A stretch of DNA of 64,000 nt from positions 2,914,001 to 2,978,000 of the forward strand of contig NZ_FPJG01000006.1 in NCBI RefSeq assembly GCF_900119165.1, given 5' to 3'. The position numbers and the translations under genes were made by a program. Below the pieces are notes generated by a model. The model saw only the letters and a program-made list of their open reading frames with translations, made no database searches and had not been told where the DNA came from. The first letter of the stretch is position 1, and each line of letters opens with the position of its first letter. The stretch comes from Amycolatopsis australiensis (GTDB lineage Bacteria; Actinomycetota; Actinomycetes; Mycobacteriales; Pseudonocardiaceae). Of the stretch, positions 40,222 to 55,129 are shown piece by piece.

Positions 40222-40317
40222 TCAGTTGTACCCGCGCACGATCACCTCATCGCCCCACGAGGACGCCTCCTCGCCTCGCTCCTCATCGGAACCCGGGGCA
40301 GCTTCCCGCGTTTCCAT
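40222..40317 (-). CDS. 31-residue peptide at the end of the fab operon
   Basis: The frame ATG 40317 to TGA 40222 encodes 31 residues that start METREAAPGSDEERG and end SSWGDEVIVRGYN. The ribosome site GGAGGAGG overlaps the end of fabG's stop region, so the peptide start is 9 bp after the fabG stop, and a terminator follows its own stop by 8 bp. It is thus the last gene of the operon. The acidic leader-like half and hydrophobic/aromatic C-terminus (Trp, Tyr, Asn) look like a ribosomal precursor peptide, but no maturation enzyme of a known RiPP class is adjacent. A small regulatory or structural protein is the alternative. Confidence 0.65.
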   Translation of the reverse strand: METREAAPGSDEERGEEASSWGDEVIVRGYN

Positions 40318-40326
40318 GCCTCCTCC

Positions 40327-41031
40327 TCAAAGCCCCATGCCGAGGCCGCCGCCGACGGGGAGTACCGCTCCCGTTATGTAGCTCGCCGCCGGGGAGGCCA
40401 GGAAGCGGATGGCCGCCGCCACCTCCTCCGCGGTGCCCGTCCGGCCCAGTGGGGTCATCCGCATCAAATCCGCCATGCGGGGGCCCGGCAGCGGCTTCGT
40501 CATGTCCGTGTCGATGATGCCCGGGGCGACCACGTTGACCGTGATGCCGCGGCCGCCCACCTCCCACGCCAGCGAACGGGCCAGGCCCGCCAGGCCGGCC
40601 TTGCTCGCCGCGTAGTTCGTCTGGCCCGGCGCACCGAGGAACGCCAGCGCCGACGACAGCAGCACCACCCGGCCCGTGCGGGCAAGCAACATTCCGCGGA
40701 TCGCCGCGCGGACCGTGCGGTACGCGCCCGTCAGGTTGGTCGCCAGTACCTCCTCGAACCGCTCCGGCGGCATCGCCGGCAGCAGCGTGTCGGCCGTGAT
40801 GCCCGCGTTGGCCACCAGGACCTCGATCGGGCCGTGCTCGGCTTCGGCCTTCTCCACCGCCCGCTCCAGGTCGCCGTCCACCGTGACGTCGGCGTGGATG
40901 CCCAGCACGCCCGGTGGCGCGCTGCCCGAACGGTGCGTGATCGCGACCTTCTCGCCGTCGTCGGCGAAGGCGCGGGCGGTGGCCAGGCCGATGCCGCGGC
41001 CGCCGCCGGTGATCAGGACGGACCGGCTCAT
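40327..41031 (-). CDS. fabG: 3-oxoacyl-ACP reductase, FabG-like
   Basis: 234 residues. Cofactor motif ITGGGRGIGLATARAFADDGEKVAITHRSGS (arginine/serine favour NADPH), NAG in VLVANAGIT, and the Ser-Tyr-Lys site in VVLLSSALAFLGAPGQTNYAASKAGLAGLARSLAWEVGGRGITVNVVAPG. It reduces beta-ketoacyl-ACP to the 3-hydroxy form. It is fourth in the operon behind fabH, the carrier protein and fabF, which makes a role on chains bound to that carrier likely. It may act in the cluster and not in primary metabolism. Confidence 0.9.
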   Translation of the reverse strand: MSRSVLITGGGRGIGLATARAFADDGEKVAITHRSGSAPPGVLGIHADVTVDGDLERAVEKAEAEHGPIEVLVANAGITADTLLPAMPPERFEEVLATNLTGAYRTVRAAIRGMLLARTGRVVLLSSALAFLGAPGQTNYAASKAGLAGLARSLAWEVGGRGITVNVVAPGIIDTDMTKPLPGPRMADLMRMTPLGRTGTAEEVAAAIRFLASPAASYITGAVLPVGGGLGMGL

Positions 41032-41044
41032 GCGCTGCTCCTCT

Positions 41045-42268
41045 CTATGCCCGGGTGAGCACCAGGGCGGCGTTGTGCCCGCCGAACCCCATCGACGTGC
41101 TCACCGCGACGTCGATCGGGCCCGTGCGGGCGCGGCCGTGGACGACGTCCAGGTCGATCTCCGGGTCCTGCTGCTCGAGGTTCGCCGTCGGCGGGATCTC
41201 GCCGTGCTGGACCGCCAGCGCCGTGTACGCGGCTTCGATCGCGCCGGCGGCCGCGAGCGTGTGCCCGGTGACGCCCTTGGTCGACGTCACCGCCGCGCCG
41301 TCGCCCAGCACCCGCCGCAGCATCCGTGCCTCGACGACGTCGTTCATCGGCGTCGCCGTGCCGTGGGCGTTGACGTGACCGACCGCCGACGGTTCGACGT
41401 CCGCGTCCGCCAGCGCTTCCCGCAGCGCGCGCTCGATCCCGGCGCCCTCGGGGTCCGGGGCGGTGGCGTGGTGCGCGTCGCACGTCGCGCCGTAGCCGCG
41501 GACCAAGGCGCGGGCGCGGTCACCGGCGTCCTCCGCCCGCTCCAGGACGAGGACGCCGGCACCCTCGGCGGCGACGAACCCGTCGCGGCCGGCGTCGAAC
41601 GGGCGGCTGGCCGTTTCCGGCGTGTCGCACCGCTTCGACAGCGCGCCCATCTTGTGCAGCCCCGCCACGACGGTCGGGGTGAGCGCCGCTTCGCCCGCTC
41701 CGGCCAGCACGATGTCGCACCGGCCCGAGCGCAGCAGGTCCCGCGCCGTCCCGACGGCCATCGCGCCGGACGCGCACGCCGCCGCGACGACCAGGTTCAC
41801 GCCCCGGGCGCCGCAGTCGATCGCCACCTGGCCGGACACCATGTTCGGCAGGTACTTCGGCACCGCGAGCGGCGACACCAGGCCCGGACCGTCGTCGCGC
41901 AGGGCCCGGTGCTGCTCCTCGAACGTCTCGGCCCCGCCGAGCGAGTTCCCGAGGACCACGCCGACGCGCGGCGCGTCCCAGTCCCGCGGGTCCCACCCGG
42001 CGTCGGCGACCGCCTCGCGGGCGGCCAGGACGGCGAGCTGGACGAACCGGTCGAGCTGCCAGCCGGCGAAGCCGCCGAGCAGCTCGTCCGGGTCGAAGTC
42101 CGGGACCCGGCAGGAGAAGTCCGCCGGCATCCCCTTCAGCGCCGGGTCCGGCGCCGCGCACGGGGTGGCCGCCCGGATCCGGTCCCAGTTGGCCTCGACG
42201 CCGATCCCGGCCGGGGTGACCAGCCCCAGGCCGGTGATCGCGACGTCGGCGGTCGGCGCGTGCGTCAT
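41045..42268 (-). CDS. fabF: Beta-ketoacyl-ACP synthase II (FabF-like KS)
   Basis: 407 residues. The Cys-His-His triad is complete: nucleophile in VNLVVAAACASGAMAVG, His in VGHVNAHGTATPMND and TKGVTGHTLAAAG. GMGFGGHN near the end is the usual phosphopantetheine-site loop (here SMGFGGHNAALVL). It elongates acyl-ACP with malonyl-ACP. No chain-length-factor partner is present, so this is not a classical type II aromatic PKS. Its ATG overlaps the carrier-protein stop (ATGA). Confidence 0.92.
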   Translation of the reverse strand: MTHAPTADVAITGLGLVTPAGIGVEANWDRIRAATPCAAPDPALKGMPADFSCRVPDFDPDELLGGFAGWQLDRFVQLAVLAAREAVADAGWDPRDWDAPRVGVVLGNSLGGAETFEEQHRALRDDGPGLVSPLAVPKYLPNMVSGQVAIDCGARGVNLVVAAACASGAMAVGTARDLLRSGRCDIVLAGAGEAALTPTVVAGLHKMGALSKRCDTPETASRPFDAGRDGFVAAEGAGVLVLERAEDAGDRARALVRGYGATCDAHHATAPDPEGAGIERALREALADADVEPSAVGHVNAHGTATPMNDVVEARMLRRVLGDGAAVTSTKGVTGHTLAAAGAIEAAYTALAVQHGEIPPTANLEQQDPEIDLDVVHGRARTGPIDVAVSTSMGFGGHNAALVLTRA

Positions 42269-42507
42269 CGGACCGCGGCCTCCTTGAGCTCGACCAGCTC
42301 GGCGGCCCCGGCGATGGTGTGCTCCCCGGTGAGCTCACCCTCGGCGAGCCGGACGCCGAACCGCTTCTCCAGCAACAGGCTCAGCTCGATCAGCACGAGC
42401 GAGTCGAACGACAGGTCTTCGAACGTCACGTCGGAGGCCAGCGCCTCCGGCTTCACGCGCAGCTTCTCGACCAGCAGCGTGCGGATCTGTTCTTCGGTGG
42501 TGGACAT
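42265..42507 (-). CDS. acpP: Acyl carrier protein
   Basis: 80 residues. EEQIRTLLVEKLRVKPEALASDVTFEDLSFDSLVLIELSLLLEKRFGVRLAEGELTGEHTIAGAAELV is a full four-helix ACP; the phosphopantetheine Ser is in FDSLVL, where the usual DSL motif sits. The start is ATG 42507 with GGAGGAAA-type ribosome site. It is coupled to fabF and lies 32 bp after fabH. It is distinct enough from primary AcpP (which has GADSLDTVEL) to suggest a dedicated carrier. Confidence 0.9.
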   Translation of the reverse strand: MSTTEEQIRTLLVEKLRVKPEALASDVTFEDLSFDSLVLIELSLLLEKRFGVRLAEGELTGEHTIAGAAELVELKEAAVR

Positions 42508-42539
42508 GGGTTTCCTCCTTCGGGTGAGTGGTTTCCGCC

Positions 42540-43541
42540 TCAGGCGAGGGTGAGGTCGGGCCAGACGAGCCCGGCCGAGCCCCAGGTGAGCCCGCCGCCG
42601 AACCCGGCGAGCACGACGCGCTGGCCCGGGCGCAGGTCGCCGTCCGCGACGCCGTCGCCGAGCGCCAGCGGCACCGAGGCGGCGACGGTGTTGCCGACGC
42701 GGTCGATGTTCGCGACGAACCGGTCGGCGGGGATGCCGAGCCGGGCCGCGACGGCGGCCAGGATCCGGGCGTTGGCCTGGTGCAGCACGACGCGGTCGAC
42801 GTCGTCGGTGCGCCACCGCAGGCGCCGGGCCGTGGCCTCGACCGACTCGCTCATCCGGCGCACGGCTTCGGCGAAGACCGGACGGCCGCGCATCGCGAAG
42901 TATTCCTCGCCCGGCGCCGCGGGACGGCCGGTCGACCGCTGCCGCGAGCCGCCGGCGGGGACTTCGATCAGTTCGCTGCGGCTGCCGTCGCTGCCGAGCG
43001 TCAGCCCGCCGATCGCGCCCGGTTCGCCGGGCTCGCCCGCGCGCAGCAGCACGGCGCCGGCGCCGTCGCCGAAGATCGCGCGCGTGGTGCGGTCGGCCGG
43101 GTCGAGGATGGTCGAGAACGCGTCGGCGCCGATGGCCAGCACGGTGTCCGCGGTGCCGGTGGCGATGAGCCCGGCCGCCGTGGCCAGTGCGTAGACGAAA
43201 CCGGTGCACACGGCCGCGACGTCGAACGCGGCGACCTCCGGCAGGCCCAGCCGGGCGGCGACCTCCGGCGCGGTGGCCGGGCACGGCCGGTCCGGGGTGC
43301 TGGTCGCGACGACCACGGCGTCGGCGTGGTCGGTCCCGGCCGACTTGAGCGCCCGGCGGCCCGCTTCGACGGCGAGGTCGCCGGTGGCTTCGCCCGGCTC
43401 GACGACGTACCGGACGCGGATCCCGGTGCGGGTGCGGATCCACTCGTCGGTGGTGTCCAGCTGCCCGGCGAGGTCGGCGTTGGTGACCTCGGTGGCGGGC
43501 AGCCACGACCCGAGTCCGCACAGCACCGCGGCCGGGGTCAC
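42540..43541 (-). CDS. fabH: Beta-ketoacyl-ACP synthase III (FabH-like)
   Basis: 333 residues from GTG 43541. The initiating KS III triad is complete: Cys112 in FDVAAVCTGFVYAL, His in VVLHQANARIL and Asn in DRVGNTVAASVPLAL. The signature LCGLGSWLPATEVTNADL and DEWIRTRTGIRVR are present. A Cys-His-Asn set means it can condense an acyl-CoA starter with malonyl-ACP; the ChlB3/CalO4-type acyltransferases that move aromatic acyl groups carry Asp in place of Asn. GTG overlaps the stop of an 11-codon frame, so translation is coupled to it. ATG 43619 in frame is an alternative start. Confidence 0.9.
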   Translation of the reverse strand: MTPAAVLCGLGSWLPATEVTNADLAGQLDTTDEWIRTRTGIRVRYVVEPGEATGDLAVEAGRRALKSAGTDHADAVVVATSTPDRPCPATAPEVAARLGLPEVAAFDVAAVCTGFVYALATAAGLIATGTADTVLAIGADAFSTILDPADRTTRAIFGDGAGAVLLRAGEPGEPGAIGGLTLGSDGSRSELIEVPAGGSRQRSTGRPAAPGEEYFAMRGRPVFAEAVRRMSESVEATARRLRWRTDDVDRVVLHQANARILAAVAARLGIPADRFVANIDRVGNTVAASVPLALGDGVADGDLRPGQRVVLAGFGGGLTWGSAGLVWPDLTLA

Positions 43542-43573
43542 CGGCCCGCCTCGCGGTGTTCGCAGGGTGTCAT
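43538..43573 (-). CDS. Putative 11-residue leader peptide of the fab operon
   Basis: The frame ATG 43573 to TGA 43538 encodes MTPCEHREAGR. It has a strong AAGGAG ribosome site with 5-nt spacing, and its TGA overlaps the GTG start of fabH (GTGA). fabH itself has no comparable site, so it is probably translated by reinitiation. The peptide is too short to be sure that it has its own role. Confidence 0.45.
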   Translation of the reverse strand: MTPCEHREAGR

Positions 43574-43762
43574 GGCAGCTCCTTTTCGCGGAAGTTCGTT
43601 CGCTGTCACCGGAACCCATGTTCGGCGGCCCGCCTCCGCCGGCCCTAACGCCGCGCTCGCGGACGGCGGAGTAGTGCCCGGCGAGCGTCGCGTGACCGGC
43701 ACCGGAGCGCGCCGGGTGAGAGTGGAATCCGTTCACGCACAGACATCCGTGAGGAGAGACCG

Positions 43763-44779
43763 GTGACAGAACTGGCCGAACGGACCGGAGTCCGTCCGGC
43801 GGTGGCCGATCCCGCCACCGCCATCTCCCGCCTCGGCTTCGACCGCACGGTCGCCCGGGGGGAGGTGCACCGGGAAGCGCTGTCCGAGGTGTTCCTGACC
43901 GACAGCGTCCGGGTCGACGCGTCGCGGTTCGTCGCCGCGGCCCGGCTGCCGGCGTCGCACGCGTACTACGGCGACCACACCGGCGGGACGCCGATCGACC
44001 CGCTGCTGCTGCTGGAATGCTGCCGGCAGGCCGAAACGCACGCGGTGCACGCGCACTTCGGCGCCCCGCGCGGCACGAAGTTCGTGCTGCAGTCGTGGTC
44101 GCTGAGCCTGCACCCGCTGCCCGCGGGTGTCCACATCGGACCCGCCGAGGTGGTGATGTCGGCGCGCACCGACGAAGCCGTGTGGCGGGACGGCGAGCTG
44201 CGGGCGCTGCGCTACCGCATGCAGGTCTACGTGGCCGGCCGGCACGCGGCCGACGTCGTGATGCGCGTGCAGTACGTGCCCGACGAGCTGTACCGGCTGA
44301 TGCGCGGCCGAAACCGCGACGGACGGCTGCCGTCTTCGGCGGACTTCCGCGCCGACCCGCCCGACGTGGCGCCCGGGCTCGTCGGGCGGACCCGGCCGGA
44401 GAACGTGGTCCTGACCGGCCCGCGCGTCGGCGCCGACCGCGTCGCGGCCCGGCTGCGGATCGACGGCGGCCACCCCAGCCTCTTCGACCACGCCCAGGAC
44501 CACGTGCCGGGGATGGTGCTGATGGAGGCGGGACGGCAGCTCGCCGTCCTCACCGCGCACACCGTCCACGGCATCCCGGCCGACGCGGTGGAGGTGACCG
44601 GCCTCGCCGCGTCCTTCGGCGCCTACGCCGAGCTGGACGCCCCGATCACCGTCTCGGCCGACGGCGCGGCGGTGGGCTCGGACCTGCTGGTCAGCTTCGA
44701 GCAGGAGGGCCGGGTGCTCGTCGAAGCGGGCTTCACCTGCCTGCCCCGGAACCGGACAACCGACGAAGGAGAGAAATGA
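43763..44779 (+). CDS. AfsA/ScbA-type butyrolactone biosynthesis hotdog protein
   Basis: 338 residues with two AfsA hotdog domains. First: RGEVHREALSEVFLTDSVRVDASRFVAAARLPASHAYYGDHTGGTPIDPLLLLECCRQAETHAVHAHFG; second: PSLFDHAQDHVPGMVLMEAGRQLAVLTAH. AfsA condenses a beta-ketoacyl-ACP with dihydroxyacetone phosphate in gamma-butyrolactone (A-factor) and related furan/butenolide synthesis. The adjacent fab operon could supply the beta-ketoacyl-ACP. GTG 43763 follows GAGGAGA. It heads a five-gene operon and overlaps the HAD gene (ATGA). Confidence 0.88.
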   Translation: MTELAERTGVRPAVADPATAISRLGFDRTVARGEVHREALSEVFLTDSVRVDASRFVAAARLPASHAYYGDHTGGTPIDPLLLLECCRQAETHAVHAHFGAPRGTKFVLQSWSLSLHPLPAGVHIGPAEVVMSARTDEAVWRDGELRALRYRMQVYVAGRHAADVVMRVQYVPDELYRLMRGRNRDGRLPSSADFRADPPDVAPGLVGRTRPENVVLTGPRVGADRVAARLRIDGGHPSLFDHAQDHVPGMVLMEAGRQLAVLTAHTVHGIPADAVEVTGLAASFGAYAELDAPITVSADGAAVGSDLLVSFEQEGRVLVEAGFTCLPRNRTTDEGEK

Positions 44780-45483
44780 CCGAGTTCGGCAAGATCAAGC
44801 TCATCGCCCTGGACACCGACGGGGTGCTGTTCAACGACACCTACAGCCCGGTGATCGAGCGTTTCGTGCGCCGGCACGGCGGGGAGTACACCGCGGAGCT
44901 GGAACGCCACGTGTGGGGGTCGCCGCAGCTGGCGGCCGGGCAGTACATGGCGCTCGCCTGCCGGCTCCCGTACTCGGCGAACGACGTCATGAAGGACTTC
45001 TTCGCCGAGCGCGACCGCTACCTCGCCGAGCACCCGGTGCGCGTCGCGCCCGGCGCCGAGGACCTGCTCAAGACGCTGGCCGGCACCGGCGTGCGCGTCA
45101 CCAGCTACGGCGGGCGCGGCAAGGAGTACTCCTTCGACCGCTTCCTCGGCCACCTCGAGCAGTACTTCGACGCCGAGACGCCCTACGTGGACGTCAACCC
45201 GTTCCGCCCGGGGGTCAAGGAGATCGTCACCGACATCTTCGGCTACGACTACGACGAGGTCGTGTTCGTCGACGACATCAACCGGGTCGCGGAGGCGGCG
45301 AAGGCGTTCGGCGCGGGCTTCGTCGGCATCCCGGCGAGCATGCCGCACAACTTCCAGCGCGCGCAGATGGCCGAGACCGGCGTGCGCTACCAGCTGGACA
45401 AGATCGACGCGGTGGATCTCCCGCTGCTGCGCGAGGTGGACCGCCACCTGGCCGACGGCACGCTGTGGGACCTGTCCGCCTGA
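44776..45483 (+). CDS. HAD-superfamily phosphatase
   Basis: 235 residues. HAD motif I is KLIALDTDGVLFNDTYSPV (Asp nucleophile and general acid Asp), motif II Ser/Thr in GVRVTSYGGRG, motif III Lys in NPFRPGVKEI and motif IV VVFVDDINRVAEAAKAFG. The helical cap lies between motifs I and II. It is coupled to the AfsA gene by a 4-bp overlap. In methylenomycin-furan synthesis the AfsA homologue MmfL works with the phosphatase MmfP, so dephosphorylation of an AfsA product is the likely job. It lacks the FkbH glyceryl-transfer architecture. Confidence 0.85.
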   Translation: MTEFGKIKLIALDTDGVLFNDTYSPVIERFVRRHGGEYTAELERHVWGSPQLAAGQYMALACRLPYSANDVMKDFFAERDRYLAEHPVRVAPGAEDLLKTLAGTGVRVTSYGGRGKEYSFDRFLGHLEQYFDAETPYVDVNPFRPGVKEIVTDIFGYDYDEVVFVDDINRVAEAAKAFGAGFVGIPASMPHNFQRAQMAETGVRYQLDKIDAVDLPLLREVDRHLADGTLWDLSA

Positions 45484-45499
45484 CCACCACGGAGGCACC

Positions 45500-46225
45500 A
45501 TGACGACCGAGACACTCACCCGCCCGGTCGGCAGCGGCTTCGAGCGCCTGGACGCGCTGATGGCGCTGATGACCGGGGACGAGAAGCACGCGCCATCCTC
45601 GACGTCCACTTTGGACGTGCTGTGGGTGCTGCACGACCGGATCCTGCGGGTCAGCCCGGACCGCGTCGACGACGAGGAACGGGACCGGTTCTTCCTCTCC
45701 AAGGGCCATGGCCCGATGGCCTACTACGCGGTGCTCGCCGCCAAGGGCTTCCTGGAGCCGGAGACGCTCGCGGGCTACGGCGACTGGGACTGCCCGCTCG
45801 GCTACCACCCCGACCGGACGCTCGTGCCGGGCGTCGAGATGGCCAGCGGCTCGCTCGGCCACGGCCTGCCCCTGGCCGTCGGCACCGCGCTGGGGCTGCG
45901 CGCCCGCGGTCTCGACCGGCCGCAGATCTGGGTGCTCGTCGGCGACGCGGAGCTCGACGAGGGCGCCAACCACGAGGCGATCGCCTTCGCCGGGCGCGCC
46001 GGGCTCGACCGGCTCCACGTCGTCGTCATCGACAACGACTCGGCGACCATCGACTGGCCCGGCGGGGTCGAGACCCGGTTCGCCGTCGAGGGCTGGTCGA
46101 CGCGGCGGGTGGACGGCCGCGACCACGTCGCGCTGGAGGCGGCGTTCACCGAACCGCACTTCGGGCGGCCGCACGTGGTCGTCGCCGAAGTCGAACGCAA
46201 GGACGGCCGGCCCCGGCGCCGGTGA
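45500..46225 (+). CDS. Transketolase, N-terminal (ThDP pyrophosphate) subunit
   Basis: 241 residues. The ThDP motif GDAELDEGANHEAIAFAGRAGLDRLHVVVIDND and FFLSKGHGPMAYYAVLAAKGF, PGVEMASGSLGHGLPLAVGTALG are those of split transketolases. It needs the C-terminal subunit encoded next. Split transketolases occur in secondary metabolism; Rif15a/Rif15b in the rifamycin cluster of Amycolatopsis mediterranei transfer a C2 keto unit from a ketose to the ansamycin. A similar C2 transfer in this cluster is inferred. Confidence 0.9.
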   Translation: MTTETLTRPVGSGFERLDALMALMTGDEKHAPSSTSTLDVLWVLHDRILRVSPDRVDDEERDRFFLSKGHGPMAYYAVLAAKGFLEPETLAGYGDWDCPLGYHPDRTLVPGVEMASGSLGHGLPLAVGTALGLRARGLDRPQIWVLVGDAELDEGANHEAIAFAGRAGLDRLHVVVIDNDSATIDWPGGVETRFAVEGWSTRRVDGRDHVALEAAFTEPHFGRPHVVVAEVERKDGRPRRR

Positions 46226-46234
46226 GGAGGCGAA

Positions 46235-47149
46235 ATGGTACTGACCTGGGAACAGCGGTTCGCCGACATCAACGCCATGCGGGCGCGCTTCGCCGCCGTG
46301 ATCGACGACCTGGTCACCGAGGACCCGCGCGTCGCCGCGGTATTCGCCGACATCACGTGGGACAAGCTGCCGGAGTCCGCGCGCAGCCACCCGCGGTTCG
46401 TCAACGTCGGCATCCGCGAGCAGCTGATGATCGACGTCGCGGGCGGCCTGGCGATGGCCGGGCTGCGCCCGATCGCGCACACGTTCGCGAGCTTCCTGGT
46501 GGAGCGGCCGTTCGAGCAGATCAAGATCGGGCTCAACCACCAGGACGTCGGCGCGGTGCTGGTCAGCGCGGGCGCGTCCTACGACCTGGCGGTGGACGGG
46601 CGCACCCACGAGGCACCCGGCGACGTGGCGCTGCTGAGCACGCTGCCGGACTGGACGATCAGCGTGCCCGGCCACGCCGACGAGGCCGAGGCGATGCTGC
46701 GCGCCGCGGCCGGCCGGTCGGACCTGGAATACATCCGCCTGTCGACCGACACGAACGCGAAGGCGTACTGGCGCGGCGAAGACGGGTTCACGGTGCTGCG
46801 CCGCGGCCGTGAAGGCACGGTCGTGGCGGTGGGGCCGCTGGCCGACCCGGTGCTGGCCGCGACGGCCGGGATGGACGTCACCGTGCTGTACGCGCCGCGC
46901 GTGCGGCCGTTCGACCGGGAGACGCTGCGGAAGACGTTGTCCAGCCCGGACGTCGCGCTGGTGGAGCCGTACCTGACGGGCACGTCGGCGGCGGAGGTCG
47001 GCGCGGCCCTGGAGGACGTCCCGCACCGGCTGCTGAGCATCGGCGTGCCGGCGAAGGAGCTGCGCCGGTACGGAACGCCGCAGGAGCACGCCGCCGCGTA
47101 CGGGCTGGACGCCAAGGGCCTGCGCGAGCGGCTGGCCCGGTTCTTCTGA
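46235..47149 (+). CDS. Transketolase, C-terminal (pyrimidine-binding) subunit
   Basis: 304 residues. RFVNVGIREQLMIDVAGGLAMAGLRPIAHTFASFLVERPFEQIKIGLNHQDVGAVLVSAG carries the catalytic Glu of GIREQ and the pyrimidine-binding loop; the third domain begins GREGTVVAVGPLADPVLAAT. With the preceding gene (9 bp apart) it forms the full enzyme. The donor would be a ketose phosphate; the acceptor is presumably a cluster intermediate. Confidence 0.9.
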   Translation: MVLTWEQRFADINAMRARFAAVIDDLVTEDPRVAAVFADITWDKLPESARSHPRFVNVGIREQLMIDVAGGLAMAGLRPIAHTFASFLVERPFEQIKIGLNHQDVGAVLVSAGASYDLAVDGRTHEAPGDVALLSTLPDWTISVPGHADEAEAMLRAAAGRSDLEYIRLSTDTNAKAYWRGEDGFTVLRRGREGTVVAVGPLADPVLAATAGMDVTVLYAPRVRPFDRETLRKTLSSPDVALVEPYLTGTSAAEVGAALEDVPHRLLSIGVPAKELRRYGTPQEHAAAYGLDAKGLRERLARFF

Positions 47150-47169
47150 TCCTCGGAAAGGATTCTGTC

Positions 47170-47622
47170 GTGCGACACACCGATGTCGCCCGCGAGGAGA
47201 TCGCCGAGCTGCTCGGCGATCTTTTCGCGGGTTTCGAAAGCCGTGACTGGAATCGGCTGGCGCAGCTGGTCGGCGAGAAGGTACACCTGGACCACACGTC
47301 CCTCGGCGCGCCGGCGGCGGAGGAGCTGACGGGCGCGGAACTCGTCGCCCGCTGGCGCCGGGGGCTGCACGAGCGCAAGAAGAACTTCCACCTGCTGAGC
47401 CACCCGCGCATCAAGGTGGACGGCGGCCACGCGGAGGTGGCGGTGAACTGCTACGCGTGCAACATCCTGGACGCCGGACTGGGCGGCGGAGTGTGGGAGT
47501 GCTGGGGCCGCCACGACATAGCGTGGCACCACACGGAGAAGGGCTGGAAGGCAACGAGCTTCGTGTTCACGAAGGCCCACACACGCGGCGACGACCGGAT
47601 CCACACGCACACGCTGGACTGA
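47170..47622 (+). CDS. SnoaL/NTF2-like family protein
   Basis: 150 residues from GTG 47170 with GGAAAGGA upstream. EEIAELLGDLFAGFESRDWNRLAQLVGEKVHLDHTSLGAPAAEELTGAELVARWRRGL is the usual NTF2-like opening cone, then KNFHLLSHPRIKVDGGHAEVAVNCYACN and GWKATSFVFTK. The family includes polyketide cyclases, dehydratases and inactive scaffolds. His and Asp residues line the cone (LDH, HLLSH). It is last in the AfsA operon; a cyclisation or isomerisation role in the pathway is possible. A terminator follows. Confidence 0.82.
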   Translation: MRHTDVAREEIAELLGDLFAGFESRDWNRLAQLVGEKVHLDHTSLGAPAAEELTGAELVARWRRGLHERKKNFHLLSHPRIKVDGGHAEVAVNCYACNILDAGLGGGVWECWGRHDIAWHHTEKGWKATSFVFTKAHTRGDDRIHTHTLD

Positions 47623-47629
47623 GCAGGGC

Positions 47630-47971: not shown

Positions 47972-48011
47972 AAGGCCGCCTCCGGAGGCAGAACACTCCG
48001 GAGGCGGCCTT
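47972..48011 (-). terminator. Terminator of the MFS gene
   Basis: Perfect 16-bp arms (AAGGCCGCCTCCGGAG) around an 8-nt loop, 13 bp beyond the MFS stop, with a short T-run on the minus strand. Confidence 0.85.
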
Positions 48012-48024
48012 GCTCAGTCCTGGA

Positions 48025-49251
48025 CTACCGGGCCGCGGCCTGCTCCGACCGCGACCGCACGAGCGTCCGCTGGGCCGCGCGTTCGCCGCTGCTCGCGAAC
48101 AGCCAGACCAGCAGGCCCAGCACCGCGAACCCCGCGCCCGCCCAGCAGGCGCCGTACCAGCCGGTCGCCTCGAACGCCTGGCCCGACACGTACGAACCCG
48201 CCACGCCGCCGATCGCGAACGACGTCATGTAGCCGCTCGCGATGCGGGCGCGGGCCTGCTGGTCGACCTCGTACACCACGCTCTGGTTGGTCACGTGCAC
48301 CGCCTGGATCGCCGCGTCCATCACCACCGCGCCGGCCACCAGCAGCAGGATGCTGGACCGGCCGAGCGCGAGGATGCCGAACGACACCGCCAGCACGGCG
48401 AGCGCGACGCCGCTGGACTGCCAGCGCCAGTGGCGGTACCGGTCGATCAGCCTGCCGCCGCCGGAGGCCACCAGCGCGCCCGCCACGCCGGACAGCGCGA
48501 ACAGGCCGATGCCGACCTGCGAGTAGTGGTACGGCGGGCCGGCCAGCAGGAACGTCACGCTCGTCCAGAACGCCGTGAACGCGGCCATCACGCAGGCGCC
48601 GATCGCGCAGCGGGACCGCATGATCGACGACCGGCGGAACTGGGCCAGCACCGACGCCACCTGGGCCGGGTACCGGGTGCGCAGCGCCGGCTGGTCGCCG
48701 TGGACCGCGCCGCGCACCACCACCGTCGCCGCGGCCATGAGGACCGCCGCCACGACGTACACCGCGCGCCAGCCGCCGGCCGCCGCGATCAGGCTCGCCA
48801 CCGTCCGCGACATCAGGATGCCGAACAGGACCCCGCCCATGATCACGCCGAGCACGCGGCCGCGGGAGGCGTCGTCGGCCAGGGTGGCCGCGTACGCGCT
48901 GATGATCGGGATGGCCGTCGCGCCGATGCCGACGAAGACGGCCAGCGCGGCCAGCGTCGGCGCGTTCGGGGCGAGCGCACTGCCCGCGAGAGCGAGCGTG
49001 TTCGTCACGAACAGCGCGGTGAGCAGGTTCCGGCGCCGGACGATGTCCGCCGCGGGCACGATGAACAGCAGCCCGATCGCGGTGCCGACCTGGCCGGTGG
49101 TGACCAAGAGCGAGACGCCCGCCGTCGAGGCGTGCAGCTCTTCGGCGATCCGGTCGAGCAGCGGCTGGGCGTAGTAGGCGTTGGCGGTGGTGACCCCGCA
49201 GATCACGGAGAACAGCAGGGCCAGTCGCGTGGGCACCGCTTTGTCCGACAT
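48025..49251 (-). CDS. MFS transporter
   Basis: 408 residues with 12 helices. FSVICGVTTANAYYAQPLLDRIAEELHASTAGVSLLVTTGQVGTAIGLLFIVPAADIVRRRNLLTALF is the start of a DHA1-type, YnfM/sugar-efflux-like subgroup with the AYYAQPLLD motif. Motif A is the degenerate PAADIVRRRN. It lies in the biosynthetic region, downstream of the SARP gene on the same strand (38 bp apart), so export of the cluster product is a likely role. Confidence 0.88.
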   Translation of the reverse strand: MSDKAVPTRLALLFSVICGVTTANAYYAQPLLDRIAEELHASTAGVSLLVTTGQVGTAIGLLFIVPAADIVRRRNLLTALFVTNTLALAGSALAPNAPTLAALAVFVGIGATAIPIISAYAATLADDASRGRVLGVIMGGVLFGILMSRTVASLIAAAGGWRAVYVVAAVLMAAATVVVRGAVHGDQPALRTRYPAQVASVLAQFRRSSIMRSRCAIGACVMAAFTAFWTSVTFLLAGPPYHYSQVGIGLFALSGVAGALVASGGGRLIDRYRHWRWQSSGVALAVLAVSFGILALGRSSILLLVAGAVVMDAAIQAVHVTNQSVVYEVDQQARARIASGYMTSFAIGGVAGSYVSGQAFEATGWYGACWAGAGFAVLGLLVWLFASSGERAAQRTLVRSRSEQAAAR

Positions 49252-49289
49252 GGTTCACACCGTCCTTTCCGGACTCCGGAGGTTTCCGC

Positions 49290-50180
49290 TCACGCCGCAC
49301 CCGCCTTCGTCAGCGGGGCGTTGGCCTGCCAGGGGATGTCGTCGAGCCGGACGGGGTCGGCGGGGGAGTCGAGCATGACCTTCCGGTGCAGCGACTGCAG
49401 CCGGCGCGACGGCTCGATGCCGAGGTTGTCGTGCAGGCTCCGGCGCAGGTTCCGGAACACCGACAGCGCCGCGTCGCGGCGCCCGGTCATGTGCAGCGCG
49501 AACATCAGGCTCGCGTGCAGCGACTCGTCGTACTCGTCCAGCGGGATCAGCGCGCGCAGCTCGCCGATGAGGCTCGCGTACCGGCGCAGCTTCAGGTCGA
49601 GCATGACGCGGCGCATCAGGATCGACTTGTTCTCCTCCAGCAGGCGCACGATCTGGGCGTAGAGCACCGGCCCCGGGATGAGGTCCCCGAGCGGGGAGCC
49701 CTGCCAGAGGTCGAGCGCTTCCTGCAGTTTCGCCGACGCCCCGGCCGCGTCGCCGCGGGCTTCCAGCTCGTCCGCTTCGGCGACGAGCTCCCGCTGGCGC
49801 CGCAGATCCGACCGGTCGAGCGTGACGTCGAGCCGGTAGCCCGCCGGCTCGGTGCGCAGCAGCCGCTTGACGGCCGGGCCGCACCCGTCTTCGCCGAGCG
49901 CGGCGGCCAGCTTCTTGCGGATCTGCAGGACGCAGTTCTGGATGGCGTTGGCGGCGTTGCGCGGCGGCTCCTCCCACAGCTCGCGTTCGATGGTGCCCGA
50001 CTGGACCACCCGGCCCTCGTTGAGCACCAGCAACGCCAGCAGCTGCTTGGCCTTCATCGCGGCGGGCACGATCGAGACGCCGCCGATCTCGACGTCGAAC
50101 GAACCGAGCACGGTAGCCCGTGCCGGGTGCGGGACGAGCCCGCCCCTCGGGCGGCTCGGTACGGCGGTGGCCGTGGTCAT
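49290..50180 (-). CDS. SARP-family transcriptional activator (AfsR/SARP, BTAD)
   Basis: 296 residues. OmpR-like DNA-binding domain: ATVLGSFDVEIGGVSIVPAAMKAKQLLALLVLNEGRVVQSGTIERELWEEPPRNAANAIQNCVLQIRKKLA; then the bacterial transcriptional activation domain RRQRELVAEADELEARGDAAGASAKLQEALDLWQGSPLGDL to the end. There is no NB-ARC or TPR extension, so it is a small SARP as found inside antibiotic clusters. It is divergent from the PKS gene, and a TetR-type operator lies between them at 50372-50387. Confidence 0.9.
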   Translation of the reverse strand: MTTATAVPSRPRGGLVPHPARATVLGSFDVEIGGVSIVPAAMKAKQLLALLVLNEGRVVQSGTIERELWEEPPRNAANAIQNCVLQIRKKLAAALGEDGCGPAVKRLLRTEPAGYRLDVTLDRSDLRRQRELVAEADELEARGDAAGASAKLQEALDLWQGSPLGDLIPGPVLYAQIVRLLEENKSILMRRVMLDLKLRRYASLIGELRALIPLDEYDESLHASLMFALHMTGRRDAALSVFRNLRRSLHDNLGIEPSRRLQSLHRKVMLDSPADPVRLDDIPWQANAPLTKAGAA

Positions 50181-50608: not shown

Positions 50609-53600
50609 ATGTCCAGTCCCGAACGCGCTGCCGCGCCGATCGGCGTCGTGGGAATGGCCTGCCGCCTGCCGGGCGCGGACTCCGTGGCCGAACTCTGGCG
50701 GCTGCTGGAGCGAAACGCCGACACCGTCACCGAGGTCCCCGCCGACCGGTTCGACGTCGCGGCGCATTGCTCCGAAACACCCGTGCCGGGCAAGACCAAT
50801 TCCCGGTTCGGCGGCTTCCTTCGCGATATCCGTGGTTTCGACGCCGGATTCTTCCGGATATCGCCGCGGGAGGCGAATCTGATGGATCCGCAGCAGCGGC
50901 TGCTGCTGCAGGTGGTCTGGGAAGCGCTGGAGGACGCCGGGATTCCGCCGTCGGCACTGGCCGGTTCGGCGACCGGCGTGTTCGTCGGCCAGGCGACGGC
51001 CGACTACGCCGCGGTCACCGGGGCGCAGTCCGGGTCGGACGTCCTCGGCATGACCGGCAGCGTGCTGCGCGCCGTCACCGCCGGCCGGGTCTCGCACGCC
51101 TTCGACTTCCGCGGCCCGAGCCTGGTCGTCGACACGGCGTGCTCGTCGTCCCTGGTGGCGGTGCACCAGGCCCGGCTGAGCCTGCTCACCGGCGAAAGCG
51201 ACGTCGCCGTCGTCGCGGGGACGAACGTCGTGCTGAGCCCCGCGGACGCGATCAGCTACGCGCAGGGCGAAATGCTTTCGCCCGACGGCCGCTGCAAGTT
51301 CGGCGCCGCGCGCCCGGACGGCTTCGTCCGCAGCGAAGGGGTCGTGGCGATGGTGCTCAAGCGCGCCGGCGACGCCCGCCGCGACGGCGACCGCGTCCGG
51401 GCGGTGCTGCTCGGCAGCGCCGTCACCAACGACGGCGACGCCGACGGGCTGATGCTGAAGCCCGCGAAGGCCGGGCAGTGCGCGGTGCTCCGGACGGCCT
51501 GCCGCGCCGCCGGGATCGAGCCCGCGGACCTCGACTACGTCGAAGCGCACGGCACCGGCACCGAGGCCGGCGACGCGACCGAGCTGGCGGCGCTCGCCGA
51601 GGTGCGGGCCGGGGCGGACGTCCCGCTGCGCGTCGGCTCGGTCAAGTCCAACCTCGGCCACACCGAGGCCGCGGCGGGGCTGGCGGGCCTGGTCAAGGCG
51701 GTGCTCGTCGCCGAGCACGGGACGATCCCGGCGTCCCTGCACGGCGACCGGGCCACCGTGCGCGCCCGGCACCCCGAACTGGACCTCGTCACGGAGAACG
51801 AGCCACTGCGTCCCCGCGGCGAGCACGCGCGCATCGGCGTCAGCTCCTTCGGGATCTCCGGCACGAACGCCCACGTGGTCCTCGCCGGTGTCGATCCGGC
51901 GGAGCCCGCCCACGCGGCGTCCGGCCCGCAGCTGCTGGTGCTGTCCGCGAAGTCGGAGAAGTCCTTGTCCGCCTTGGCCTCCGCCTATGCGGACTTTCTC
52001 GCCGGTCCGGGTAAGCGCTATCCACTGGCCGGCATCTGCCACGCGGCCGCGCTGGGCCGCGACGCGCTCGAACACCGGCTCTGGGCCGTCGGCGAGACCC
52101 ACGAAGAGCTTGCCGCGCAGCTGCGGGCGTGCGCACGCGGCGAGCTCACCGCCGGGGCGGGGCGGCAGCGGGCCGCCCGCGCGCCGCGCACCGGGTTCGT
52201 CTTCTCCGGTCAGGGCGGCCAGTGGGCGGGCATGGGACGGCGGCTGCTGGAAACGGCGCCGGAGTTCCGCGCGGCGATGCGCCGCTGCGACGACGCCGTG
52301 CGCGCCGAGCTGGGCTGGTCGGTCCTGGACCGGCTGCGCGACCCGCGTCCCGGGGACCTGTCGCGGGTCCAGGTGGCCCAGCCGGTGTTGTGGGCGTTCG
52401 AAACCGCGCTGGCCGACCTGCTGCGGGCGCGGGGTGTCGAGCCGGACCTGTGCCTCGGCCACAGCATGGGCGAAGCGGCCGCGGCGTACGCCTCGGGCGC
52501 GCTGTCGCGGACCGGCTCCGCCGCGGTGATCTGCCGCCGCAGCAGCCTGATGACGCAGGTCTCGGGCGCCGGGCGGATGCTGGCCGTCGAGCTGCCCGCC
52601 GACGCGGCCGCGGAGCTGACGAAGGACGAGCAGGCGGTCTGCGTCGCCGCCGAGAACGCGCCACGGGCGACGGTGCTCTCCGGCGAGGCGGCGGCGATCG
52701 AGCGGGTCGCGGCCCGGTGCGACGACCGGGGTGTGTTCGCCCGTCCGGTGCAGGTCGACGTCGCGTCCCACTCGCCGCTGATGGACGAGCTGCTCCCGGA
52801 ACTGCGCGGCGCGCTCGACGACGTCGAGCCGGCGCCGGAAGCGACCACGACGCTGTTCTCGACCGTGCGCGCCCGCCCGGTCGCGAGCGCCGAGCTGACG
52901 GCAGGCTACTGGGCCGACAACCTCCGCGCGCCGGTGCGGCTGGCGTCCGCGGTCACCGAAGTGGCCGCGGCGGGTCCGTGCGTGCTGGTCGAGCTGAGCC
53001 CGCATCCGGTGCTGCTGGGCGCGCTGCGCGACTGCCTCGGCGAGCATCCGGAGTCGGCCGCCGTCGCCACGCTCTCCCGCCGGGAGCCGGAGGACGTGGC
53101 GCTGCTCAAGGCGGTGGGGGCGGTCTTCGCCGCGGGCGGCGCGGTCGACTGGACACGGTTCCACGGCGGCGGCCCGCGCCCGCACGTGCCGCTCCCGCAC
53201 TACCGCTGGGACACGACCGAGCACTGGGCGCCGGTGGCGCCGTCGCGCTCGGAGCGCCGCACGGTCACCCTCGGCGAGCTGGGCATCCTCGAAGCCTGCC
53301 GGGAGACCGAAGTGGCCGGTGTCAGGCCGGTGCCCGCGGCCGCCTACCTCGAGGCGGCGTTCCACCTCACGGGCGCATCGGCATTGCGAGATCTGCGTTT
53401 CTCAGGTGACTCACTGTCCTGTGTGGACGGTGATGTCACGGTCGAGGGACACGTCGCCGCCCCGGGTTTCGCGCTGACGGCGACCGGTCCGGACGGGACG
53501 GCCTGCCAGGTCACCGGCTTGCTCGCGGGGCCGACGGCCGTCCCCGCGGACAGCGCGCTGGACGCGGCGCTGGGCGAGTGCCCGGAGTTCCTGCCCGGCG

Positions 53601-54196
53601 ACCGGTTCGAGCGGCTGGCCGCCCGCCGCGGCTACCGGTTCACGATGGGCTCCGGCGTGCGACGGCTGTGGCGCGGCGACGGTGTCGTCGTCGCCCAGCA
53701 CGGGCCGGCGTCCCGCTTTGGCGCGCTGGAAGGCGCGTTGCGGACGCTGCCGGCGGTGTGGCCGGAGACGTCGTATGCGATCACGGGCGTCGGCGAAGTC
53801 GTCGCGGGAGAGCTGCCGGAGGGCGAGTTCTGGACGGTCGCGCGCTTCGGCGAGCGGTCGCAGCTGCGGGTCCTGCACCCGGACGGCCGGGTCGCGGCCA
53901 CGCTGGACGGCGTCGAGTTCGTCCCGGTGGCGGCGGTCGCGGCACCGGCGGGTGACGTCCGCGAGGTGTTCGTCCGGTCGCTGGCGCAGGTGCTGGGCAC
54001 GCCGCCGGCGTCGGTGGACCTGCGGCGTCCGCTGCGCGACCTGGGCCTGGACTCGATCATGGCCACGCAGCTGCGACGGGCCGTGAGCGCGGCGACGGGC
54101 GTGTCGGTGACGGCGGCGGAGCTGCTGGAGCCGGTGAGCGCGGAGGAGCTGCTGGCCCGCCTGGCGGCCGAGCCCGGGCACCGGAACGCCGCGTGA
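50609..54196 (+). CDS. Iterative-type polyketide synthase, KS-AT-DH*-ACP
   Basis: 1195 residues. KS (about 8-430): Cys178 in VDTACSSSLVAVH, VEAHGTGTEAGD, VKSNLGHTEAAAGLAG. AT (about 530-840): GQGGQWAGMGR, Ser619 in GHSMGEAAAAY, VASHSPLMDELL. A DH/TH-like hotdog pair (about 890-1095) aligns best with the 6-MSAS/orsellinate type (GVxxVPAA), but its catalytic His is Thr900 and the second-site Asp is missing. ACP at the end: LRDLGLDSIMATQL with Ser1149. There is no KR or thioesterase. Size and order match AviM/CalO5-like orsellinic acid synthases. Release may need another cluster enzyme. The AT extender cannot be fixed from sequence. Confidence 0.92.
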   Translation: MSSPERAAAPIGVVGMACRLPGADSVAELWRLLERNADTVTEVPADRFDVAAHCSETPVPGKTNSRFGGFLRDIRGFDAGFFRISPREANLMDPQQRLLLQVVWEALEDAGIPPSALAGSATGVFVGQATADYAAVTGAQSGSDVLGMTGSVLRAVTAGRVSHAFDFRGPSLVVDTACSSSLVAVHQARLSLLTGESDVAVVAGTNVVLSPADAISYAQGEMLSPDGRCKFGAARPDGFVRSEGVVAMVLKRAGDARRDGDRVRAVLLGSAVTNDGDADGLMLKPAKAGQCAVLRTACRAAGIEPADLDYVEAHGTGTEAGDATELAALAEVRAGADVPLRVGSVKSNLGHTEAAAGLAGLVKAVLVAEHGTIPASLHGDRATVRARHPELDLVTENEPLRPRGEHARIGVSSFGISGTNAHVVLAGVDPAEPAHAASGPQLLVLSAKSEKSLSALASAYADFLAGPGKRYPLAGICHAAALGRDALEHRLWAVGETHEELAAQLRACARGELTAGAGRQRAARAPRTGFVFSGQGGQWAGMGRRLLETAPEFRAAMRRCDDAVRAELGWSVLDRLRDPRPGDLSRVQVAQPVLWAFETALADLLRARGVEPDLCLGHSMGEAAAAYASGALSRTGSAAVICRRSSLMTQVSGAGRMLAVELPADAAAELTKDEQAVCVAAENAPRATVLSGEAAAIERVAARCDDRGVFARPVQVDVASHSPLMDELLPELRGALDDVEPAPEATTTLFSTVRARPVASAELTAGYWADNLRAPVRLASAVTEVAAAGPCVLVELSPHPVLLGALRDCLGEHPESAAVATLSRREPEDVALLKAVGAVFAAGGAVDWTRFHGGGPRPHVPLPHYRWDTTEHWAPVAPSRSERRTVTLGELGILEACRETEVAGVRPVPAAAYLEAAFHLTGASALRDLRFSGDSLSCVDGDVTVEGHVAAPGFALTATGPDGTACQVTGLLAGPTAVPADSALDAALGECPEFLPGDRFERLAARRGYRFTMGSGVRRLWRGDGVVVAQHGPASRFGALEGALRTLPAVWPETSYAITGVGEVVAGELPEGEFWTVARFGERSQLRVLHPDGRVAATLDGVEFVPVAAVAAPAGDVREVFVRSLAQVLGTPPASVDLRRPLRDLGLDSIMATQLRRAVSAATGVSVTAAELLEPVSAEELLARLAAEPGHRNAA

Positions 54197-54433
54197 GGCC
54201 GGTGCTGGAGCCGCCGGCCGGTGCTGATCCGGTGCGGGCTGCCGGCGCCGGTGCTGGGCGCGGCCCAGCCGGCTGACGAGCTGTGGCCCGGTGGCCGGTC
54301 CAGCCGGGGCGCGGCTCCGCCGGCGGTGGAGCCACTGCCCCGCTCGGCCACCGAGCCCGGCCACCGGAACGCGGCGTCACAACGCTGTCCGGTTCAGGAA
54401 GTTTGCGCACCGTTGCGCTACTGAGAGTCAAAC

Positions 54434-54449
54434 TTGTACGCTAGTACAG
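54434..54449. promoter_or_regulatory. TetR operator before its own gene
   Basis: TTGTACGCTAGTACAG: arms as at 50372-50387 with one mismatch, 42 bp before the TetR start. The remaining 54197-54433 has no gene that I can support. Confidence 0.68.
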
Positions 54450-54490
54450 CGAGAGGAGTTCCAGGCCCACGACGAGGAGATCCCGACGTG

Positions 54491-55129
54491 ATGACGACCG
54501 AGGCGGCCGGGCAGGCTCCGCTCGGCCGCCGGGAGCGGCACAAGCGCGCGGCGAAGCTGCGGTTGTACACCAGCGCGCTCGAACTGTTCACCGAACGCGG
54601 CTACGAGAAGACGACGGTCGAGGACATCACCGAGCGCGCCGACGTCGGCCGTGGCACGTTCTTCAACCACTTCCGCCGCAAGGAAGACCTCGTGTCGCTC
54701 TGGGGCGAGCAGCGGCGGGATCACCTCAACGAGCACCTCGCGCGCAGCCGGGCGGCCCAGCGGCCCGCCGGTGTGGTCGAGGAGCTCGAGTATTGCATGC
54801 GCGCGCTCGCCGCGATGAACGAGACCGAGTGGGCGCGCACCCGAACCATGCTGCTCGCGTGGGTCAAGGCGGGCCGCCCGGTCCTCGAGGAGCCGCACGC
54901 GGCGGACATCTTCGCGGACATCGTCGCGACCGGCATCGAGCACGGCGAAATCGCCCCGGACGTCGATGCCCGCCGCGTCGGCAACCTGCTCCGGGACGCC
55001 TACCTCGGCACGCTCTACCGCTGGGCCCAGTTCGAGGAGCCGCCGGGCCCGCTGGCCGACGAGCTGATCGCGATCCTCTCGGTCATCCTGCGCGGCATCC
55101 TGCCCGCCGGGCGCGTCAGCCCAGCTTGA
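54491..55129 (+). CDS. TetR-family regulator of the PKS block
   Basis: 212 residues from ATG 54491 (GTG 54488 directly before it is an alternative; GAGGAGA lies 11 or 8 nt upstream). HTH: RRERHKRAAKLRLYTSALELFTERGYEKTTVEDITERADVGRGTFFNHFRRKEDLVSLWG. The ligand domain is all-helical. The gene lies downstream of the PKS, and matching operators at its own promoter and in the SARP/PKS region suggest that it represses both, as pathway-specific TetR proteins often do. Its 3' end overlaps the convergent epoxide hydrolase gene by 14 bp. Confidence 0.88.
   Translation: MTTEAAGQAPLGRRERHKRAAKLRLYTSALELFTERGYEKTTVEDITERADVGRGTFFNHFRRKEDLVSLWGEQRRDHLNEHLARSRAAQRPAGVVEELEYCMRALAAMNETEWARTRTMLLAWVKAGRPVLEEPHAADIFADIVATGIEHGEIAPDVDARRVGNLLRDAYLGTLYRWAQFEEPPGPLADELIAILSVILRGILPAGRVSPA

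What the first reader, a model, noticed from the sequence alone, without database searches (positions are those of the whole stretch)
40222..55129. Unusual biosynthetic cluster joining FAS-like genes, AfsA, HAD phosphatase, split transketolase and an orsellinate-type PKS
Seen: divergent operons fabH-ACP-fabF-fabG-peptide and AfsA-HAD-transketolase N/C-NTF2, then MFS, SARP, KS-AT-DH*-ACP PKS and TetR. Known: AfsA condenses beta-ketoacyl-ACP with a triose phosphate, MmfP-type phosphatases follow it in furan synthesis, and split transketolase Rif15 adds a C2 unit in the rifamycin pathway. I know of no described pathway with this set. Inference: a butyrolactone- or furan-like lipid part, a C2 unit and perhaps an aromatic unit are combined.
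Basis: partly seen in the sequence, partly recalled or inferred. Interest (0 to 1): 0.8.

Follow-up and report, generated by a model that had tools for sequence, protein, structure and literature searches.

The report
Transketolase-containing butyrolactone-type gene cassette
A soil actinomycete carries a gene cluster whose core, an A-factor-type lactone synthase coupled to a phosphatase, a two-part transketolase and an exporter, recurs on mobile DNA of gut bacteria next to a quorum-sensing-type regulator, which suggests an undescribed family of signal molecules.

Summary
Window 40222-55129 is one block, shared with a near relative (G159, probably Amycolatopsis tolypomycina; 85-90% DNA identity over 40334-55108). 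AfsA, ACP, ketosynthase, HAD phosphatase, MFS exporter and split transketolase (TKN/TKC) also form an operon on integrative elements of E. coli (13 of 5,426 genomes), and AfsA-HAD-TKN-TKC recurs in a probable Streptomyces. Cassette TKC form one group in the tree (100/100), with Rif15 and the generic split transketolase outside it. Of related AfsA-fabH-ACP-fabF-HAD loci, 7 of 7 without TKN/TKC carry an aldo/keto reductase; the transketolase loci lack it nearby. The E. coli operon adjoins a LuxR-type receptor lacking the AHL-contacting Asp and has a lux-box-like palindrome at fixed promoter spacing.

Best reading: AfsA and HAD make an acyl-butenolide, the transketolase adds a C2 ketol unit where relatives reduce, and the exported product is a signal, at least in enterobacteria. 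The PKS is an actinobacterial extra with a dead DH; 'orsellinate-type' is not supported. All chemistry is inferred.

The parts
40222..40317 (-). 31-aa peptide ORF after fabG, C-terminus VIVRGYN
   Evidence: same place and ending in G159; 2 such endings in 215 loci, 2.7 Mb
40327..41031 (-). fabG-like SDR ketoreductase
   Evidence: PF13561; 94% in G159, 73% in G621
41045..42268 (-). fabF-like ketosynthase (KASII)
   Evidence: PF00109/PF02801; 62-72% in other AfsA loci, 41-43% to E. coli cassette KS
42265..42519 (-). acyl carrier protein
   Evidence: PF00550
42540..43541 (-). fabH-like KASIII (start inferred from the 333-aa homologue)
   Evidence: PF08541/PF08545
43763..44779 (+). AfsA/ScbA-type butenolide synthase
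   Evidence: PF03756 twice; NCBIfam NF041195 234 bits over cut-off 200
44776..45483 (+). HAD phosphatase
   Evidence: PF00702; DTDG, SYGGR, PGVK and VDDINR motifs present (their role recalled)
45500..46225 (+). transketolase N subunit (ThDP-binding)
   Evidence: PF00456; 61% to the E. coli cassette
46235..47149 (+). transketolase C subunit (pyrimidine-binding)
   Evidence: PF02779; 64-65% to E. coli; cassette group in the tree, 100/100
47170..47622 (+). SnoaL/NTF2-like protein
   Evidence: PF13577; among the loci compared only in the window and G159
48025..49251 (-). MFS exporter
   Evidence: PF07690; 33-34% to the E. coli cassette MFS, no match at 1e-10 in the seven reductase-type loci
49290..50180 (-). 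SARP regulator
   Evidence: PF03704/PF00486; 53% in G621
50609..54196 (+). single-module PKS, KS-AT-(inactive DH)-ACP
   Evidence: Pfam; DH fold; motifs
54434..55129 (+). TetR regulator, not of the ScbR receptor family
   Evidence: 52 bits against the ScbR cut-off of 150; 91-92% in G159, 54% in G621

Best explanation
The block is a lipid-lactone cluster built around a mobile core: AfsA, ACP, ketosynthase, HAD phosphatase, two-subunit transketolase and MFS exporter. Proposed route: (1) KASIII/ACP/KASII (in E. coli ACP and KS on host fatty-acid intermediates) make a beta-ketoacyl-ACP; (2) AfsA transfers the acyl chain to dihydroxyacetone phosphate and the ester closes to a butenolide phosphate; (3) the HAD enzyme removes the phosphate; (4) TKN-TKC, a ThDP enzyme, transfers a two-carbon ketol unit from a ketose phosphate to the electrophilic acyl-butenolide, at the step where relatives use an aldo/keto reductase; (5) the MFS protein exports the product. 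In enterobacteria the product is the ligand of the adjacent LuxR-type receptor, which switches on the operon. In Amycolatopsis the core is joined to its own acyl supply and to a SARP/TetR-controlled single-module PKS, whose product is either joined to or controlled by the same molecule. Shown: gene content, co-occurrence, one TKC group, reductase/transketolase complementarity, receptor and operator. Inferred: every chemical step and the ligand.
For: AfsA-HAD-TKN-TKC in the same order in the window, G159 and G924 and AfsA-ACP-KS-HAD-MFS-TKN-TKC in three E. coli loci viewed. TKC tree. Reductase in 7 of 7 related loci without TKN/TKC, Pfam-confirmed in each; relatives of the window's MFS in the TK loci and in none of those seven. 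LuxR-type gene beside the operon, Asp70 position Ser in 13 of 13 aligned; palindrome and fixed spacing. Rif15 precedent: PMC6002545, passages. AfsA chemistry: PMC7756420, passages.
Against: No product known. Rif15 works on a quinone, not a butenolide. The window itself has a fabG, so it is not free of reductases. G924 is a 7.8-kb contig, so absences there mean little. One of the seven reductase loci, G210, has a 598-aa ORF with 30% match to TKC about 7 kb from AfsA. The HAD tree does not unite transketolase-linked HADs. The E. coli AfsA is only 26-27% identical to the window's and below the NCBIfam cut-off. The LuxR link is seen only in enterobacteria; the window has no LuxR-type or ScbR-type receptor that I found.
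Confidence: 0.5

Rival explanations
1. The transketolase acts before AfsA: it makes or remodels the ketose phosphate that AfsA acylates instead of dihydroxyacetone phosphate, and the HAD enzyme dephosphorylates the adduct.
For: Gene order AfsA-HAD-TKN-TKC does not fix the order of steps; transketolases make ketose phosphates (general knowledge).
Against: The complementarity with the reductase points to a step after ring closure; Rif15, of the same enzyme family, acts on a finished scaffold.
Confidence: 0.2
2. The cassette makes an antimicrobial or other effector rather than a signal; the LuxR-type regulator only senses it or another cue.
For: R. pomeroyi needs an afsA cluster for diffusible killing (PMC7426152, passages); the operon includes an exporter.
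Against: No immunity gene is annotated in the operon; the palindrome stands before the biosynthetic operon, as in autoinduction.
Confidence: 0.2
3. In the window the transketolase unit and the PKS belong to two pathways that merely lie together: a signal unit controlling, through SARP/TetR, a separate polyketide.
For: G621 has PKS, SARP, TetR and fab/AfsA without TKN/TKC; E. coli has the cassette without PKS. AfsA products commonly control SARP genes (general knowledge).
Against: AfsA and the fab genes stay with the PKS even without the transketolase (G621), which suggests a shared product.
Confidence: 0.35
4. TKN/TKC load a glycolyl (C2) starter onto the ACP, as QncN/QncL and SclQ2/SclQ3 do, so that the C2 unit is part of the acyl chain.
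For: An ACP is in the cassette; the precedent exists (PMC6335953, passages).
Against: No lipoyl/acyltransferase partner among the genes of the block or annotated beside the E. coli operon.
Confidence: 0.1

Closest known systems
A-factor / gamma-butyrolactone and methylenomycin-furan pathways (AfsA, ScbA, MmfL with MmfP)
   Same: AfsA-type synthase followed by a HAD phosphatase; window AfsA passes the NCBIfam ScbA/BarX cut-off
   Different: own KASIII/ACP/KASII; split transketolase instead of a dedicated butenolide reductase; no ScbR-type receptor
Salinipostin/cyclipostin-like clusters (assignment recalled)
   Same: AfsA-fabH-ACP-fabF-HAD core; HAD 67-70% and fabF 65-68% identical to the window
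   Different: they have PPDK/PEP-synthase-like, DUF6182 and aldo/keto reductase genes and no TKN/TKC nearby
Rif15A/B of rifamycin biosynthesis
   Same: two-subunit transketolase family, 62% (TKN) and 56-57% (TKC) to the window; moves a C2 keto unit to a natural product (PMC6002545, passages)
   Different: outside the cassette group in the tree; acts on rifamycin S; Trp where the cassette has Asp121
QncN/QncL and SclQ1-4 glycolyl-ACP systems
   Same: split ThDP subunits giving a C2 unit (PMC6335953, passages)
   Different: lipoyl/acyltransferase part not found here
PluR/PauR non-AHL LuxR-type receptors
   Same: LuxR-type receptor with altered AHL motif (PMC4414361, passages)
   Different: PluR/PauR keep the Asp (TYDQ); here it is Ser; the ligand source would be an AfsA cassette
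AfsA gene of ICEPan in Pantoea ananatis
   Same: AfsA gene as cargo of an enterobacterial integrative element
   Different: partners named are SsfD/SsfC-like and StrU-like; the word transketolase does not occur (PMC4458695, passages)

Membership tests
AfsA/ScbA butenolide synthase | NCBIfam NF041195 above its cut-off, two AfsA hotdog stretches | tested here: met
   window: 234 bits against 200, two stretches. E. coli A38: Pfam met (86 against 24), NCBIfam not met (112 against 200)
Gamma-butyrolactone signalling system of Streptomyces | ScbR/ArpA-type receptor in the cluster | tested here: not met
   the block's TetR scores 52 bits against a cut-off of 150; a true ScbR control scored 208
Rif15-type transketolase | same clade as Rif15B | tested here: not met
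   28 cassette rows on one side of a 100/100 branch, the 4 rows labelled Rif15 outside it
Rif15-type transketolase | C2 transfer to a non-sugar acceptor | not testable with these tools
   needs enzyme assay
QncN/QncL-type glycolyl-ACP loading | lipoyl/acyltransferase partner | tested here: not met
   no such Pfam domain in the proteins of the block and none annotated next to the E. coli operon
Salinipostin-like cluster | PPDK/PEP-synthase-like, DUF6182 and aldo/keto reductase genes | tested here: not met
   present in G043/G045/G881 (Pfam), absent from the genes of the block
Orsellinate-type iterative PKS | KS-AT-DH/TH-ACP architecture | tested here: met
Orsellinate-type iterative PKS | catalytic His of the DH/TH domain (motif recalled) | tested here: not met
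   Thr at the expected place in the window
AHL-type LuxR receptor (E. coli neighbour gene) | WYDPWG motif | tested here: not met
   W39, F43, S52, W67, G89 invariant in 13 of 13 aligned; Asp reads Ser, Pro varies
AHL-type LuxR receptor (E. coli neighbour gene) | autoinducer-binding and GerE domains | tested here: met
   PF03472 33-36 bits (cut-off 23) and PF00196 54-56 bits (cut-off 23.5)

The most novel reading that the evidence does not exclude
A cross-phylum, horizontally moving cassette makes an undescribed class of signal, a C2-extended acyl-butenolide (or furan), by pairing an A-factor-type synthase with a dedicated transketolase. In enterobacteria it forms a complete non-AHL quorum-sensing circuit (synthase operon, exporter, LuxR-type receptor, lux-box-like operator) on integrative elements; in actinomycetes the same module is built into a SARP/PKS cluster.
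Probability: 0.45. Interest if true: 0.88.

Novelty: new variant of a known kind. Interest (0 to 1): 0.74.

Why it matters
It would make the transketolase a recurrent partner of A-factor-type synthases and tie actinomycete hormone chemistry to a LuxR-type receptor in E. coli, Klebsiella, Citrobacter, Salmonella and Serratia. The question 'what does this orphan LuxR bind?' becomes a direct test, and the TKC group and the palindrome are handles to find more systems. The contrast aldo/keto reductase versus transketolase after AfsA would predict product chemistry from gene content.

Tried and rejected
(a) TKN as a marker: the 80 loci kept of 580 confirmed were Streptomycetaceae and close kin by title; in none did the AfsA, HAD, fabF, ACP, fabH, SnoaL, MFS, SARP or PKS of the window match at 1e-6, and neighbours of two reference loci were in at most 42 of 80, so these are generic pairs; TKC and HAD were used instead. 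(b) A HAD tree to show one history of transketolase-linked HADs: unresolved, 2 changes, 1 only in 2% of bootstraps. (c) HADs at 41-50%: 14 of the 17 stretches viewed have an AfsA match, often short and weak, so they are mostly other AfsA loci. (d) Changed sugar-phosphate residues in the transketolase: Rif15 and generic forms look alike there, so not used. (e) More PKS holders in the family of G621: 8 of 200 at 1e-200; besides G621 the 7 others match only residues 5-881 at 46-51%, 5 of them in frames over 2,100 aa, and were not viewed further. (f) Enterobacterial HAD or TKC on plasmids: only Streptomyces and Rhodococcus hits at the limits used. (g) A 1,687-aa frame in G924 was a false gene call. 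(h) A draft of this report dismissed the peptide after fabG; some searches showed it conserved in G159, and the text was mended. (i) A 2021 survey of salinipostin-type AfsA clusters (PMC8209734) is not held; it may already list such loci.
Full report
What is there. The window lies in a 9.3-Mb genome. The nearest HAD in the protein collection, 94% identical, is named Amycolatopsis tolypomycina and comes from a contig of 8,172,406 bases, the length of the G159 contig that carries the cluster, so I take G159 for that species. DNA alignment with G159 covers 40334-47623, 47967-54196 and 54362-55108 at 90, 85 and 87% identity and finds nothing else in the 35 kb compared. To the left, the 31-aa peptide at 40222-40317 has a 22-aa counterpart in G159 at the same place; the shared ending VIVxGYN occurs nowhere else in the 215 loci (2.7 Mb) held. 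Its role is unknown.

The PKS. It reads KS-AT-x-ACP, 1195 aa, with intact KS, AT and ACP motifs. The x region folds as a polyketide dehydratase in a model of moderate confidence (3 sequences), with Thr and Glu at the expected catalytic positions (recalled motif). In the PDB its KS-AT is nearest to DEBS modules. An orsellinate synthase is not supported. The relative in G621, of another family, shares a cluster with fabG 73%, fabF 72%, ACP 46%, fabH 70%, AfsA 58%, SARP 53%, TetR 54% and PKS 50% identity, and with an aldo/keto reductase, a carboxyltransferase and a thioesterase; its HAD is only 47% identical, and no TKN/TKC lies in the 39 kb read. More distant PKS matches (42-49%) lie near the AfsA core in G045 and G043.

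The AfsA core. AfsA, fabH, ACP, fabF and HAD occur together in G045, G043, G407, G881, G229 and G210 and more loosely in G621. G043, G045, G407 and G881 share six further genes: a PPDK/PEP-synthase-like protein, a UbiA-like one (just below its cut-off in G045, no hit in G881), a DUF6182 protein and three without a Pfam hit; Pfam was run on G045, G043 and G881 members, and G407 follows by 51-72% identity. From memory this resembles salinipostin/cyclipostin clusters. An aldo/keto reductase lies in the same stretch in 7 of these 7 loci, confirmed by Pfam in each. In the stretches of the transketolase loci (window 64 kb, G159 35 kb, three E. coli loci of 25-31 kb, G924 7.8 kb) the same query finds only a 30% match in the window, 34 kb from AfsA. 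A relative of the window's MFS shows the reverse: window, G159 and E. coli yes, none of the seven. G210 also has a 598-aa ORF with a 30% match to TKC about 7 kb from its AfsA.

The cassette in other bacteria. HAD relatives at 51-57% are named from Salmonella, Serratia fonticola, E. coli, Photobacterium, Citrobacter, Exercitatus, Klebsiella oxytoca and Halomonas (best 120 of 158 listed). A back-translated query found the E. coli locus in 13 of 5,426 genomes, repeated assemblies of two strains included; the 6.7-kb operon of CFE299 is in 12 of them, 11 at 99% or more and one at 96.9%; A38 is the thirteenth. In the three copies viewed (A38, SCU-101, CFE299) the order is AfsA, ACP, KS, HAD, MFS, TKN, TKC, with a convergent LuxR-type gene; a tyrosine recombinase lies upstream (beside tRNA-Asn in SCU-101 and CFE299) and conjugation or mobilisation genes downstream. 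Identities to the window: TKC 64-65%, TKN 61%, HAD 57%, KS 41-43%, MFS 33-34%, AfsA 26-27%. G924, in the same unnamed genus as G407 (probably Streptomyces), has AfsA 50%, HAD 77%, TKN 79% and TKC 79% in the window's order; the contig ends inside TKC. Of 392 genomes of that genus, 3 have a HAD at E <= 1e-75, and only G924 has TKN/TKC beside it.

The transketolase. In the window's genus 78 of 80 genomes have a TKC match; the cassette form is in the window genome and G159 only, each of which also has a generic copy. G112 and G159 each have a further pair in a rif-type gene neighbourhood (P450, methyltransferase, TKN, TKC; names recalled, no family search run), which I take for Rif15. In a tree of 62 TKC the 28 cassette rows are one side of a branch with 100/100 support; the four rows labelled Rif15 (two by gene order, two by similarity) nest among generic ones. 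TKC positions 118, 120 and 121, just before the GRTH motif, are fixed in the cassette rows and differ in most others; Rif15 has Trp at 121. The HAD tree is unresolved and does not join transketolase-linked HADs.

The receptor. The E. coli LuxR-type protein has autoinducer-binding and GerE domains. A word-based search of 5.8 billion proteins found 39 relatives at E <= 1e-8, 38 of them at 50% or more, named from Klebsiella, Citrobacter, E. coli, Salmonella, Serratia fonticola and Bisgaard Taxon 10/6; six share a contig length with a cassette TKC and two with a HAD. Against QscR the AHL motif WYDPWG reads W, F, S, variable, W, G; these residues are invariant in the 13 proteins aligned (two E. coli loci and 11 of the 39). 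PMC4414361 (passages) describes the motif and its changes in PluR and PauR, which keep the Asp. Before afsA both E. coli types have CTGTCARAACTGACAG, a CTG-N10-CAG palindrome (L144:12568, L146:9569; SCU-101 too); A38 has one more with one mismatch (L144:11009), about 300 bases before a porin gene; weaker matches (2-3 mismatches) lie at L144:6382 and L146:15630. Shuffles give 0.3 matches on average. At all three sites TTTAATA begins exactly 22 bases after the palindrome; background 18 of 85,829 positions. That would centre the box near -42, as in LuxR-activated promoters (recalled). The two E. coli types differ by 14-39% in their proteins, so the conservation has weight, but it rests on two operon lineages and one porin promoter.

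Mechanism. AfsA acylates dihydroxyacetone phosphate with a beta-ketoacyl group, and the ester closes to a butenolide that is then dephosphorylated (PMC7756420, passages; general knowledge). Rif15 shows that such a two-subunit transketolase can put a C2 ketol unit on an electrophilic carbonyl of a natural product, xylulose-5-phosphate being the best donor tested (PMC6002545, passages). From the reductase/transketolase complementarity I infer that the acyl-butenolide is the acceptor. My odds: that the core is a real inherited unit, about 0.9; that it acts on one molecule, about 0.75; that the C2 unit goes onto the butenolide, about 0.45; that the enterobacterial product is the ligand of the LuxR-type protein, about 0.6.

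Novelty. In ten searches no listed row held both AfsA and transketolase; listings are capped (for example 20 of 145). AfsA genes outside actinobacteria are in print: ICEPan, Pseudomonas, gladiofungin in Burkholderia, Chromobacterium, R. pomeroyi; all seen as passages, and in 35, 49 and 73, where I looked for the word, transketolase does not occur. A review of LuxR solos (PMC10134790, passages) mentions neither AfsA nor transketolase and expects solos beside uncharacterised biosynthetic operons. The library is open-licence PMC only.

Noticed in passing
L144:11009-11024 (E. coli A38): A second copy of the palindrome, one mismatch, with the same 22-base spacing to TTTAATA, about 300 bases before a porin gene: a possible further target of the LuxR-type regulator.
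   Followed up: partly
L145 (E. coli SCU-101): The element with the cassette is followed within about 6 kb by colibactin (clb) genes, and its afsA appears in two frames, unlike in CFE299.
   Followed up: no
L146:9503-9650: The annotated start of the CFE299 AfsA lies upstream of the palindrome; alignment with A38 suggests the true start is downstream of it.
   Followed up: partly
window 40222-40317 and L113:9874-9942: Short acidic peptide ORF after fabG, conserved only in its last residues (VIVxGYN) in the window and G159; role unknown, perhaps a precursor peptide or a small partner protein.
   Followed up: partly
L194, L195 (G112, G159): Rif-type gene neighbourhoods with a Rif15-like split transketolase; G159 thus holds three split transketolases.
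   Followed up: partly
L115-L118 (G045, G043): Salinipostin-like AfsA clusters with a PKS related to the window's (42-49%) nearby.
   Followed up: no
window 35245-37351: Rieske/VanA-type oxygenase with a ferredoxin-type reductase, left of the block and not shared with G159 in the stretch compared.
   Followed up: no
window 55116-56748: Epoxide-hydrolase-like gene and a second TetR gene with overlapping open frames, right of the block and not shared with G159 in the stretch compared.
   Followed up: no
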